This document shows, in pieces, positions 12,293 through 57,605 of a stretch of 64,000 nucleotides of DNA. Both the position numbers and the translations under genes were made by a program. Each line of letters opens with the position of its first letter. Position 1 is the stretch's first letter. Source of the stretch: Prevotellaceae bacterium (GTDB taxonomy: Bacteria > Bacteroidota > Bacteroidia > Bacteroidales > Bacteroidaceae); the NCBI GenBank assembly GCA_030531085.1, contig JAUNOM010000006.1, positions 1 through 64,000 of the forward strand. The letters run 5' to 3'. The notes below the pieces were generated by a model. It worked only from the letters and a program-made list of their open reading frames with translations. It was not told the origin of the DNA and searched no databases.

Positions 12293-12913
12293 ATGAATGA
12301 GTATACGTCATACAAGCTGCGTTTGAAGTCCGCTGTATTGCAGGAAGCGCGTCGTTGCTTCCTGCAATATGGCATCCGCATTGTCAAAATGGATGACATA
12401 GCGCGCAATCTCGGAGTTTCAAAGCGCACGGTGTATGAGCTGTACGCCACGAAGGAGGAACTGCTATGCGAAGTGATAAGGGCTCTGCATGAGGAAAGGA
12501 ATAAAAGTGTCCAGGAGTTGTTTGCCACGTGTGACAACAATATGGATCTGCTTATAGGAGTGTTAGGGCTGCAACTAAAAAGTGCTGCGGCTGTGAACTT
12601 CGCCTTTTTTAAGGATATACAGAAGTATCCACAGGCGGAAAAGCTTATAAATGAATATTATAAGCAGCAGAATGTGTATGCGGCGGAGTTCTTTGCCAAA
12701 GGAGTGGAGGAAGGCTTTTTCTTGCCTACTGTGGATTATACGGTGCTGAACCGGGTAGCTTCTGGCACGATGGAGATGCTGTCGAAGGATGAACGTTTTG
12801 ACGATTTGTCATACCGCGAGCTGTTTCTTGGTTATCTGTATGTCATGGTTCGAGGATTCTGTACAGTCAAAGGCATAGAGAAAATGGACAAGTTTGTGGA
12901 GAAGAATTTCTGA
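12293..12913 (+). CDS. TetR/AcrR family transcriptional regulator
   Basis: 206 residues from ATG at 12293 (a TTG three codons earlier is less likely). The N-terminal helix-turn-helix is clear: FLQYGIRIVKMDDIARNLGVSKRTVYELYATKEEL (read in two parts, residues about 23-57). The C-terminal ligand domain is mostly helical and diverged. It is preceded by the DUF3127 gene (96 bp) and followed by the non-coding repeat region, so no obvious target operon adjoins it; the regulated gene is unknown. Confidence 0.9.
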   Translation: MNEYTSYKLRLKSAVLQEARRCFLQYGIRIVKMDDIARNLGVSKRTVYELYATKEELLCEVIRALHEERNKSVQELFATCDNNMDLLIGVLGLQLKSAAAVNFAFFKDIQKYPQAEKLINEYYKQQNVYAAEFFAKGVEEGFFLPTVDYTVLNRVASGTMEMLSKDERFDDLSYRELFLGYLYVMVRGFCTVKGIEKMDKFVEKNF

Positions 12914-13019
12914 ATATATTTCCATTATCGGTATACGGAGACGCGTTTTAGACTGTAGCAAATCCGCATGATGATTGTTCATGATAAAGTGTTTCTTGCA
13001 TACCAGACCGCTAATGGCT

Positions 13020-13069
13020 AAAAATCAAAGTGTCAAAAAAATGCCCCTTTTTTTGACACTTTGATTTTT
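13020..13069. repeat. Hairpin A1, left end of composite repeat element
   Basis: Perfect 22-bp inverted repeat (AAAAATCAAAGTGTC plus seven A on the left arm) around a 6-nt loop TGCCCC. It may also end transcription of the TetR gene, but a closely similar sequence (CAAAGTGTCA, A-run, TGCC, T-run) occurs 28 kb away at 41875-41912. Confidence 0.85.
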
Positions 13070-13108
13070 GTACCTTGAAAATACGGCTGTCAGATTGACG
13101 AAAGCGTA

Positions 13109-13137
13109 AGACGGGCGCGTACAGACGATTCTTCGCG
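13109..13137 (+). repeat. GC-rich module C1 of composite element
   Basis: Contains ACGGGCGCGTACAG followed by CGATTCTTCGCG. The reverse complement of 41803-41829 is almost the same (ACGGGCGCGTACAG, then CGCATTCTCGCG). The GC-rich block stands out in AT-rich surroundings and encodes nothing obvious. Confidence 0.75.
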
Positions 13138-13214
13138 GATTTTTCTATCTTTCTGATTATTAGGCAACTGATTTCTAAAGATGGGAGATAGGTGTTCTTC
13201 TATGGAGCTATTTG

Positions 13215-13302
13215 TATGTGATTAGGGTGTAAAAGGATAGAGATTGCAGTGTAATTAATGATTGATTGCAAGGTAATCACATAGAGATAGCAGCGTAATA
13301 AG
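13215..13302 (+). repeat. Array B1: four 22-bp units
   Basis: Four consecutive units of exactly 22 bp, starting at 13215, 13237, 13259 and 13281. Units 1-4 carry, at the same phase, the cores ATTAGGGTGTAAAA, ATTGCAGTGTAAT, ATTGCAAGGTAAT and ATAGCAGCGTAAT. Cores are nearly palindromic and the outer six bases are often ATAGAG. The same order of core types appears in array B2. Confidence 0.75.
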
Positions 13303-13419
13303 TGCCAAATTGTTTCAAAAATGCCTGTTTGTAGCATGACAGTGGAAAGAGAAAAGGTGTAAAGGTCCTTCTTTTGGCGTTTTTCTTGTGTAGAATGGCA
13401 AGGGTACTTGAAACTTCGA

Positions 13420-13469
13420 AAATATCATTTTGTCACAAAAAGGCGCTGTTTTGTGACAAAATGATATTT
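13420..13469. repeat. Hairpin A2, right end of composite element
   Basis: Perfect 21-bp inverted repeat (left arm AAATATCATTTTGTCACAAAA in two parts, positions 13420-13440; right arm 13449-13469) with an 8-nt loop. Shares TGTCACAAAA with the other A hairpins. GGCTA occurs just outside both ends (13016-13020 and 13471-13475), a possible target duplication. Confidence 0.75.
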
Positions 13470-13511
13470 GGGCTATATTTGGTTCGCAGGGTGAATGTAG
13501 CGTGTTTCTCT

Positions 13512-14342
13512 TTATAAAATCATATTTTTGTCTTGAAACTGCAGGTTGAGTTTGTTGCACCATTCATCAAACTCCATATTCACCCTTTGCATCCAGTCAG
13601 GCAATGTCTTCAGGGCCTTGTATACTAATGGCTCTGGCATCTCCTTGTAATAAGCGTATGCCATAGGACCTGCAATGGCTGCCAGTGTGTCAGCGTCGCC
13701 TCCAAGTGATATAGCCAGTTTAATGCAGTCGGTATAGTCCGTGCTGGCGATAAAGCATATAATCGCAGGCCCAACAGTTCCGGGGCTTGTTGAGTTGAAT
13801 ATGAAGTCATCGTGTATTTCGTCGTATGTTTTTCCTGCCCAGTAGGGGTAATGCTTGTTGAGCAATTCCTTTTCTATGTATTTTTTGTCCTTGCCGTTTT
13901 TCAGGTGAAATATGGCAAGTGCGGTGACCACTGCTCCCCTGATGCCTTCTTCGTGGTTATGTGTCGGGAGAGCTGTCTCTGTAGCTAATTGGACGCATTC
14001 CTCTTCTGTCTGCGCGATCCATCCGGCTGATGATGCTCGCATTGCTGCCCCATTCCCGAAACTGGAGTATGGCAGGTGGTCGTGATCTTGCATCCATTCC
14101 TTGAAACGGTGCCCGTATCCGGCTTTGGGGTGCTGGTTTGCGCACATCCAGATATTGTGACTCATGTCTATCTTTTTCAGAAACGCCTCAGCGCAAGCGA
14201 ATGTCAGTACTGTGTCATCAGTGAAATGTGCTCTTGATGAAAACATCTTTACGGCGTTGTAGTCTTTGGTCCTGTGGGTTCTCCCCTCGTATGCGCTTCC
14301 TGCGATGTCGCCTATGACTGCGCTCATTAATAAGTTCTTCAT
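13512..14342 (-). CDS. ADP-ribosylglycohydrolase family protein
   Basis: 276 residues. Family motifs for the two-magnesium site are complete: GDIAGSAYEG near residue 11, FTDDTVLT near 40, and GGDADTLAAIAGPM near 215. Such enzymes remove ADP-ribose from modified proteins, nucleic acids or small molecules; the substrate here is unknown. It stands alone, convergent with the TetR gene across the repeat region. A -7-like TAACTTTG lies at 14407-14400 on the minus strand. Confidence 0.92.
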   Translation of the reverse strand: MKNLLMSAVIGDIAGSAYEGRTHRTKDYNAVKMFSSRAHFTDDTVLTFACAEAFLKKIDMSHNIWMCANQHPKAGYGHRFKEWMQDHDHLPYSSFGNGAAMRASSAGWIAQTEEECVQLATETALPTHNHEEGIRGAVVTALAIFHLKNGKDKKYIEKELLNKHYPYWAGKTYDEIHDDFIFNSTSPGTVGPAIICFIASTDYTDCIKLAISLGGDADTLAAIAGPMAYAYYKEMPEPLVYKALKTLPDWMQRVNMEFDEWCNKLNLQFQDKNMIL

Positions 14343-33573: not shown

Positions 33574-33655
33574 GTTTTATACAGGTTTGACAATGCTCTG
33601 TGTGCCTGCTGTAAAGTGTTGATAAATAGAAAGATATAGACCCCACTGTAAAAGC

Positions 33656-33743
33656 TATCAAATTACCTTGTAAAAGCATAGAGATTACAGTGTAATTTGA
33701 TAGAGATTACAAGGTAATTTGATAGCTTTTGCAGCGGGATTAA
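33656..33743 (+). repeat. Array B2: 22-bp units between convergent genes
   Basis: Units of exactly 22 bp start at 33656, 33678, 33700 and 33722 with cores ATTACCTTGTAAAA, ATTACAGTGTAAT, ATTACAAGGTAAT and TTTGCAGCGGGAT. A weaker fifth unit precedes it at 33634-33655 (ends CTGTAAAAGC like the next one). Units 2 and 3 differ at only two bases. No A hairpins or C module accompany this copy. Besides this array and the nagB terminator the 311-bp gap holds nothing evident. Confidence 0.8.
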
Positions 33744-41448: not shown

Positions 41449-41496
41449 AAAACTACATATATTAAAATACACGATTTTCTTTTAAACCCCATTTTG

Positions 41497-41536
41497 ACAA
41501 AACGTCACAAAAATTCCTTTTTTTGTGACGTTTTGT
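41497..41536. repeat. Hairpin A3, end of inverted composite element
   Basis: Perfect 17-bp inverted repeat (ACAAAACGTCACAAAAA at 41497-41513, complement at 41520-41536) with a 6-nt loop and T-run. It may terminate the FtsB-like operon, but it also shares GTCACAAAA with A2 and A4. Confidence 0.8.
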
Positions 41537-41612
41537 TTTTTTGTAACAGTCGACATTACTTTGCATTCTGGAGAGAAAATACACTCTCTTTATCCATTGA
41601 AAGAGCGAAAAA

Positions 41613-41722
41613 GTGCTTGCTGGAGCGCAATTTGATAGCTATTACCTTGTAATTAGATACATATTGCAGTGTTATCTCTATCAAATTGCAAGGTAATCTC
41701 TATCAAATAACAGCGTAAAAAG
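41613..41722 (-). repeat. Array B3: 22-bp units, inverted relative to B1
   Basis: Units of 22 bp start at 41613, 41635, 41657, 41679 and 41701. On the plus strand the cores are GCTGGAGCGCAAT, ATTACCTTGTAAT, ATTGCAGTGTTAT, ATTGCAAGGTAAT and ATAACAGCGTAAA. Because cores are near-palindromic the order fits B1/B2 in either direction; the surrounding A and C modules show the whole locus is inverted. Confidence 0.8.
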
Positions 41723-41802
41723 GCTCCTTTTAAGTCGCTATTATATATGTTTACAAGTGTTATGTTACGTAAGTATAAGATTATTAAGTTGTTAGTTGTA
41801 TG

Positions 41803-41829
41803 CGCGAGAATGCGCTGTACGCGCCCGTT
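41803..41829 (-). repeat. GC-rich module C2 of composite element
   Basis: Reverse complement reads ACGGGCGCGTACAG then CGCATTCTCGCG, matching C1 at 13109-13137 almost base for base. Same place relative to the arrays and the CAAAGTGTCA hairpin, but inverted. Confidence 0.75.
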
Positions 41830-41874
41830 ATGAATTAATTTTGAAATACGCGATTCTCAGAGAGTCTGGAAAAT

Positions 41875-41912
41875 CAAAGTGTCACAAAAACTGCCTTTTT
41901 TGTAACACTTTG
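41875..41912. repeat. Hairpin A4, other end of inverted composite element
   Basis: CAAAGTGTCACAAAAA (41875-41890), loop CTGCC, then TTTTTTGTAACACTTTG (41896-41912): 16 pairs with one mismatch. Extended match to A1 (AAAATCAAAGTGTCA). With A3, B3 and C2 this fills most of the 726-bp gap 41449-42174; the rest (41913-42086) is AT-rich with no feature seen. Confidence 0.8.
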
Positions 41913-42086
41913 TAAAATGGCACTTCCTTTGTAGAGGATTGTAAAATGTATGGATTTAATGTGATTTATATGTTGTACCTATCTGCGTTAGGTGGTGTTG
42001 TAGTGTTTATAAATCCTAAATGATAAGAACATTAAACTAAAAAAACATTAAACGTACACTTAATTCTACTAAATACCGTAAATTTA

Positions 42087-57495: not shown

Positions 57496-57605
57496 TGGCT
57501 TATTCCGTTACAATCTGTATGCTATTGCAATGCGAACACTATCATATTGCACTGCAATAGCATACAGATTGCTTTGCGAAAGCTATCTGATTGTGGCGTG
57601 AAATG
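57496..57605 (+). repeat. Array B4: diverged 22-bp units
   Basis: Units of exactly 22 bp start at 57518, 57540, 57562 and 57584, with cores ATTGCAATGCGAA, ATTGCACTGCAAT, ATTGCTTTGCGAA and ATTGTGGCGTGAA; a weaker unit precedes at 57496 (ATTCCGTTACAAT). The ATTGC...G.AA frame at fixed phase links it to B1-B3 although the sequence differs. It lies between divergent genes and is followed by AGCCTTTTT as B3 is by GGCTCCTTTT. Confidence 0.65.

What the first reader, a model, noticed from the sequence alone, without database searches (positions are those of the whole stretch)
13020..13469. Composite non-coding element: hairpin, GC-rich module, 22-bp array, hairpin
Within 450 bp lie hairpin A1, module C1, array B1 and hairpin A2. 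The same four module types occur in reverse orientation at 41497-41912 (A4, C2, B3, A3), with A1 resembling A4, C1 nearly identical to C2, and sequence around the arrays alignable (TATTTG, GGAGC next to the array). The element has no coding frame, and GGCTA just outside both ends could be a target duplication. I do not know a described family with this build. It may be a small non-autonomous mobile element or a structured RNA or chromosome-organising site.
Basis: partly seen in the sequence, partly recalled or inferred. Interest (0 to 1): 0.75.

Follow-up and report, generated by a model that had tools for sequence, protein, structure and literature searches.

The report
Modular 22-bp-array repeats across Prevotella
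The 450-base stretch is one copy of a non-coding repeat scattered behind genes in a Prevotella genome; its core recurs in other species of the genus beside tandem arrays that keep a 22-base step while their letters change from species to species.

Summary
The two window copies (13020-13469; 41491-41918) belong to one dispersed family (87 BLAST matches in the genome; 30 of 30 scored left-end candidates) with a fixed layout: hairpin, core, 22-bp array, hairpin. Of 18 measured copies, 14 are 427-430 bp and 3 are 22 bp longer. The core was found in 34 of 398 genomes of the genus. At 13 of 15 weak core matches lag 22 is the strongest self-similarity, although the unit differs. Of 20 sample windows per genome, 4 (G000), 6 (G016) and 7 (G150) hold a 22-bp array with that genome's own unit, about one per 12-22 kb. 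Elements sit behind stop codons, in either orientation. No target duplication; no Rfam match but tRNAs; no Y1 transposase in several element-bearing genomes. Best reading: a modular MITE-like repeat family, built like BOX or BrickBuilt, spread by an unidentified enzyme. Striking point: array sequence turns over while the period stays. Mobility and function are inferred. No description found in the searches made.

The parts
13020..13069 (+). left-end hairpin of copy 1 (GTGTCA type)
13070..13138 (+). core (module C) of copy 1, variant form; GACGGGCGCGTACAG at 13110-13124
   Evidence: sequence; aligned with 26 other copies
13237..13299 (+). 22-bp array of copy 1, 2.9 units
   Evidence: units
13420..13469 (+). 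right-end hairpin of copy 1 (palindromic outer arm)
41491..41536 (-). right end of copy 2: end motif ACGTTTTGTCAAAAT and hairpin 41497-41536
41630..41718 (-). 22-bp array of copy 2 (units in both orientations; folds as one long hairpin)
41750..41875 (-). core of copy 2
   Evidence: match to cross-species model R2, E 7e-20, (this copy was in the model)
41875..41918 (-). left-end hairpin of copy 2
33647..33725 (+). array-only copy between convergent genes; near-identical array at L281 1109
57502..57590 (-). array without a recognised core

Best explanation
A modular, non-coding, non-autonomous repeat family of Prevotella that spread by copying into intergenic DNA, each lineage amplifying its own version; the 22-bp array is its most numerous module and also occurs alone. 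Shown: many dispersed copies, fixed layout, sharp ends, length steps of 22 bp in G000, a core conserved across many species of the genus, arrays whose period is kept while their sequence changes, position behind stop codons. Inferred: that copies arose by transposition with an enzyme supplied in trans; that the array is a set of binding sites for that enzyme or a companion protein, so that protein and array change together; that insertions survive mainly behind genes because promoters and coding DNA do not tolerate them; that the end hairpins can stop transcription from both sides.
For: 87 BLAST matches in G000 from one query, many of them one palindrome on both strands; 30 of 30 scored candidates with the left-end model. 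Length 427-430 bp in 14 of 18 copies, 450-451 in 3, 440 in 1; the extra 22 bp lie between core and the CTCTAAAATGC motif (271-274 against 293-294), while motif to end is constant at 84 (17 of the 19 rows listed had all anchors). In UBA3627 the end motif has 88 matches against 3 for the reversed pattern; 20 of 20 fetched end pairs (fetched because paired) lie 345-346 (4), 355-357 (10) or 381-382 bp apart (6). Core in 34 of 398 genomes of the genus at E <= 0.001. Lag 22 on top at 13 of 15 weak core matches, 18 of 20 further stretches (4 of them the same loci) and 23 of 38 G000 loci, against 18 of 292 flank windows. In 19 of 22 codirectional sites the element is nearer the preceding stop than the next start (read). 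Positions mostly not shared between species; in two of the three shared gene sides the element lies in opposite orientation (L012/L176, L031/L113; read), which suggests separate insertions.
Against: No enzyme, no autonomous parent, no target duplication, no clean empty site: at the two orthologous gene sides without an element the other flank differs too. Copies in G000 are old (mean pairwise identity 63%, 21 copies), so no recent movement of the composite form is shown there. One shared gene side has the same orientation (L039/L091). The arrays are dense and occur without core or ends, so array and element may have separate histories. The terminator scan found no classical terminator in 12900-13600.
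Confidence: 0.55

Rival explanations
1. Chromosomal sites for a DNA-binding protein: the 22-bp arrays, spread along the chromosome behind genes, serve nucleoid organisation, supercoil control or insulation, as proposed for enterobacterial BIMEs (recalled). Copies spread once and are now kept for this use, and the protein changes its site in each lineage.
For: Array density about one per 12-22 kb in three genomes by sample windows; period kept while sequence changes; dyad centres spaced 11, 22, 33, 44 or 88 bp (one 11.5) in the 7 of 15 arrays with two or more, against a mean of 0.25 dyads per 110 nt in 147 flank windows; no orientation preference.
Against: 5 of 15 arrays show one dyad and 3 none at the threshold used. 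No candidate protein identified. Positions are mostly not shared. The conserved core is not explained. G024, without a core match, had one array in 20 windows.
Confidence: 0.25
2. Structured RNA genes or 3' UTR regulatory RNAs: the core hairpin and array act as transcripts, ended by the end hairpins.
For: The arms beside the conserved loop pair better within a genome than between genomes (own mean -14.9 kcal/mol, permuted -12.7 +/- 0.9, 186 of 20,000 permutations as good); stable hairpins; terminator-like hairpins after the array in RGIG1502 and UBA3627 (by eye).
Against: Pairing is clear in 7 of 18 genomes (at most 2 of 17 foreign arms as good), and in 6 at least half of the foreign arms do as well (G012, G180, G014, G212, G299, RGIG1502). 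No Rfam family in the window but tRNAs; on six loci only sub-threshold microRNA hits. Both orientations relative to neighbours. A DNA-strand hairpin would give the same signal.
Confidence: 0.1
3. Palindrome-ended elements moved by a resident IS200/IS605-type (Y1, HUH) transposase or a RAYT, as for PATEs and REPs.
For: End hairpins, no target duplication, end motifs in direct orientation in UBA3627, G299 and G311 (the last two genomes by eye). 22-bp arrays lie near Y1 genes: 2 of 3 loci in G016 at >= 0.56 (the third 0.55), 2 of 2 in G150 (one with another unit), 0 of 1 in G299.
Against: 6 of 20 and 8 of 20 evenly placed windows of G016 and G150 reach that score too, so no enrichment is shown. 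PF01797: 4 of 6 genomes positive (G001 and G144 look like one assembly), G000 and G146 negative, 5 of 12 positive, none in G311, G259, G012, G137 (97-99% complete), which carry cores. No constant motif at the left flank of G000 copies by eye.
Confidence: 0.05

Closest known systems
BrickBuilt MITE of Porphyromonas gingivalis (PMC4596501; abstract, passages and section 5 read)
   Same: Also Bacteroidetes (recalled); dispersed intergenic element with leader, tandem array of 23-nt units and tail; no coding capacity; 19 copies in one genome.
   Different: 23-nt units; termini GAGACCTTTGCA, most similar to ISPg1/ISPg9 (IS5 family); reported in P. gingivalis and P. gulae, with only weak BLASTx tail hits elsewhere. 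Here period 22, other ends, hairpin ends, a core in many species, no parent IS found.
BOX elements of Streptococcus (PMC3049150; passages read)
   Same: Composite boxA-(boxB)n-boxC build with a variable number of a tandem module; excess between convergent genes; predicted stem-loops; different families in related species.
   Different: boxB is longer (about 45 nt, recalled); TIR similar to ISSpn2. No sequence comparison with BOX was made here.
REP/BIME and GTAG/CGTC-tagged palindromes (PMC3733652; passages read)
   Same: Palindromes outside genes in many copies; mosaics of several modules (BIME recalled).
   Different: REPs are 20-40 bp with an unpaired GTAG or CGTC tag; here 40-50 bp end hairpins without such a tag (by eye), plus a core and an array.

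Membership tests
MITE (generic) | many dispersed non-coding copies of a few hundred bp with sharp ends | tested here: met
MITE (generic) | terminal inverted repeats matching an autonomous transposon | tested here: inconclusive
   ends of G000 copies are similar in opposite orientation (by eye), ends in UBA3627 are direct repeats; no autonomous copy seen, but single end motifs were not all followed
MITE (generic) | target-site duplication | tested here: not met
   18 of 30 oriented rows had both ends detected; mean best match 3.7 against 3.6 in 400 cross-copy controls
BrickBuilt | 23-nt repeats and GAGACCTTTGCA termini | tested here: not met
   period 22; ends differ; BrickBuilt termini from PMC4596501
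BOX | sequence homology to boxA, boxB, boxC | not tested
   no BOX sequence was fetched
REP/RAYT system | resident RAYT / Y1 transposase flanked by the palindromes | tested here: not met
   PF01797 not found in G000 (81% complete), G146, G259, G311, G192, G012, G137, G128, G147; where present (G016, G150) nearby arrays are no more frequent than in sample windows; of 13 Y1 loci scanned, two had a core-like 14-mer with one mismatch, not followed
REP/RAYT system | GTAG or CGTC tag beside a 20-40 bp palindrome | tested here: inconclusive
   no such unpaired tag seen by eye at the G000 hairpins; CGTC lies inside the right stem
Known Rfam RNA family | match at gathering score | tested here: not met
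   two tRNAs only in the window; six loci searched by E-value: three sub-threshold microRNA hits
IS200/IS605-derived element (PATE) | constant cleavage motif at the left flank | tested here: inconclusive
   none seen by eye in the left flanks of G000 copies; other species not tested

The most novel reading that the evidence does not exclude
A lock-and-key system on the chromosome: on the order of a hundred or two arrays of species-specific 22-bp sites per genome, some of them beside a conserved hairpin loop (TTTSAAAATWATTT..CGG..), the grammar of HUH Rep origins (conserved nick hairpin plus species-specific iterons, recalled). An unknown Prevotella protein would have changed its site again and again while array geometry stayed, and would copy or organise these sites.
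Probability: 0.15. Interest if true: 0.85.

Novelty: new variant of a known kind. Interest (0 to 1): 0.65.

Why it matters
Modular interspersed repeats such as BrickBuilt are reported from one or two species. Here core and array geometry are traceable across many species of one genus, while the array sequence has been replaced. That is a natural experiment on how a DNA-binding or copying protein and its sites change together, and it supplies candidate terminators or insulators at dozens of gene ends in organisms with little regulatory annotation.

Tried and rejected
Target duplication GGCTA: no support over 18 copies. Known RNA families: none. Plasmid and phage records: no match with one copy each; viral contigs: 0 matches to the core pattern. 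One G000 copy by BLAST in 60 relatives: matches in 2, G000 itself and G001; left-end model: 7 of 120 genomes, so the ends are species-specific. Y1/RAYT as resident mover: absent in several element-bearing genomes. Promoters and terminators in copy 1: 3 promoter-like sites against 2.4 +/- 2.0 in shuffles, 0 terminator-like. RNAalifold on the left end found only the hairpin, with no two-sided changes, so it gives no covariation evidence. Shared positions: three gene sides; my hand estimate of about 0.7 by chance is too rough to decide. Family-wide search: 6 of 301 genomes, G000 included, two of them in other genera (L217, L219); of four loci looked at, none had lag 22 as clear best (L216 tied 10/22), so I treat the two outside hits as chance. 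The 11-bp difference of the 345 and 356 bp classes in UBA3627 lies behind the array by eye and is not used as evidence. Paper search for the end motif: 18 papers, none relevant by title.

Rows dropped: three of 30 oriented rows left out of A1; 21 of 30 rows had a detected right end for the full alignment, 18 for the end test; A2 uses 26 copies picked by me from the 46 and 8 read; the pairing test uses one locus per genome in 18 genomes picked by me, with L122 and L133 left out for want of a clear anchor. G001 and G144, G347 and G146, G393 and G147 look like the same assemblies (equal coordinates). Of the 8 windows of G150 at >= 0.60, one is a simple repeat and is not counted as an array; of the 2 of G024, one is a run of N.

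Full report
1. Observation. Both window loci hold the four modules claimed, in opposite orientation. The hairpins are far more stable than shuffles (0 of 200 for each), and the two loci align far above dinucleotide shuffles, also without the hairpins. Copy 1 lies between a TetR-type gene (ends 12913) and an ADP-ribosylglycohydrolase gene on the other strand (13512-14342); copy 2 follows a 146-aa frame without a Pfam match and precedes a DUF4369 gene. An 82-aa mechanical frame overlaps copy 1, and there is no sign that it is a gene.

2. A dispersed family. One BLAST of copy 1 against its draft genome (G000, 2.37 Mb, 61 contigs, 81% complete) gave 87 matches, many of them the same palindrome on both strands. 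From 38 fetched stretches plus the window, aligned copies show one plan: AAAAATCAAAGTGTCA hairpin; core with TTTSAAAATTATTT and CGCGTACAGCGCATTCTC; AT-rich spacer; array of units like GATAGAGATTACAGTGTAATCT in both orientations; CTCTAAAATGCAAGGTGA; second hairpin, most often ending GTTTTGTCAAAAT. Lengths cluster at 427-430 (14 of 18) and 450-451 (3), with one at 440; the extra 22 bp lie between core and CTCTAAAATGC. Mean identity among 21 full copies is 63%, so these copies are old. L010 keeps both ends and core but has no recognised array.

3. Across species. A core pattern found 27 stretches in the collection of 84,980 species, all in records named Prevotella or Prevotellaceae (UBA3627 18, RGIG1502 5, Tb.RUG.131 3, RGIG10298 1), and none in viral contigs. 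G001, in the genus of the window, has the coordinates of RGIG1502 (G144), which is how I name the genus. The ends differ by species while core and array remain. In UBA3627 both ends carry ATGACAAAAATGTCCTAT or a close form in direct orientation (88 matches, control 3; 20 pairs). A sequence-only model of the core (26 copies) matched 34 of 398 genomes of the genus, 15 of 175 among the better ones, with only 8 candidates scored per genome. In 301 genomes of the family it matched 6, two of them outside the genus and unconvincing.

4. Arrays keep their period, not their sequence. In 15 weak core matches, each from another genome, lag 22 was the best of lags 8-45 in 13; in 20 stretches from four genomes in 18, four of them the same loci. 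In 292 flank windows it was best in 18, some of which will hold other arrays. The units look unrelated, for example AAAATGAGTCATTTTACGTTCC, ACGGAGCCTGTTTTGAAACGCA and CGACGGGGCCGCCGTTGCATCA. Where an array has two or more strong dyads their spacings are 11, 22, 33, 44 or 88 bp, with one of 11.5 (7 of 15 arrays).

5. Array density. In 4.3-kb windows placed without looking at the sequence (even steps in G016, G150 and G024; round positions on six long contigs in G000), lag-22 self-similarity of 0.60 or more occurred in 4 of 20 in G000, 6 of 20 in G016 and 8 of 20 in G150 (one a simple repeat), against a mean of 0.27, 0.33 and 0.10 windows per lag for other lags. The arrays in each genome share that genome's unit by eye: GATAGAGATTACA in G000, TTGCGTCA/AAGTCA forms in G016, CTTAGCTTTTGCA in G150. 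This suggests about one array per 12-22 kb, on the order of 100-200 per genome, many more than the cores found; the sample is small. In G024, without a core match, one array was seen in 20 windows. So the array is a widespread module of which the composite element is one carrier. Array-only copies at 33647 and L281 are nearly identical, hence probably younger than the composite copies.

6. Core hairpin. The arms beside the conserved loop pair better within a genome than between genomes: own mean -14.9 against -12.7 +/- 0.9 kcal/mol, 186 of 20,000 permutations as good. It is clear in 7 of 18 genomes (G253, G193, G156, G192, G259, G000, UBA3627) and not seen in 6. It fits RNA or single-stranded DNA.

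7. Setting. Of 36 contexts in G000, by simple frame calling, 22 are codirectional, 9 convergent, 4 divergent and 1 open. In 19 of the 22 the element is nearer the preceding stop than the following start. Orientation is even (12 and 10). Insertion anywhere followed by loss from promoters would give the same picture, as argued for BOX elements (PMC3049150).

8. Movement. Gene neighbours are mostly not shared. Three gene sides carry an element in two species, two of them in opposite orientation, and one site is near-shared by two sister species. Two orthologous gene sides lack the element, but the other flank differs as well; around L109 synteny is poor in two relatives. No target duplication, no autonomous copy seen, and no Y1 transposase in G000 or in four near-complete core-bearing genomes. 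Arrays near Y1 genes in G016 and G150 are no more frequent than in sample windows.

9. Verdict. The family is real, spans many species of the genus and is undescribed in the searches made (most subscription papers are not held). I file it as a modular MITE-like repeat family with an unidentified mover, close in build to BOX and BrickBuilt, not a member of BrickBuilt, and not a REP/RAYT system on present evidence.

Noticed in passing
window 33647-33725; L281 1109-1196; L038 1414-1502: Array-only palindromic copies of about 90 bp, two of them nearly identical: perhaps a young small element of its own.
   Followed up: partly
L010 1481-2075: Element with both ends and core, about 590 bp, in which no array unit was recognised.
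   Followed up: no
Tb.RUG.131 (G145), many contigs: 38 of its 43 matches are to the array part of a UBA3627 element, besides its RGIG1502-type elements: two array types in one genome.
   Followed up: no
L139, L143, L145, L152, L154, L156: 381-bp class in UBA3627 with another left module holding a long stem (TTTCCTTGCGATATT / AATATCGCAAGGAAA) that differs on both sides in L154 (by eye).
   Followed up: no
L144, L146, L147, L149, L150, L153 and others: Copies with a shared left extension outside the end motif, so one subfamily is longer to the left.
   Followed up: no
L210, L214 (G016): Y1 transposase gene between palindromes of another kind (AACTCGGTACGAGTT, CCCACGTTGGC), perhaps a RAYT with its own REP family (by eye).
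   Followed up: no
L296 944-1031 (G024): A clear 22-bp array with a unit near AACGTGGGTAATACGATTACCC in a genome without a core match.
   Followed up: no
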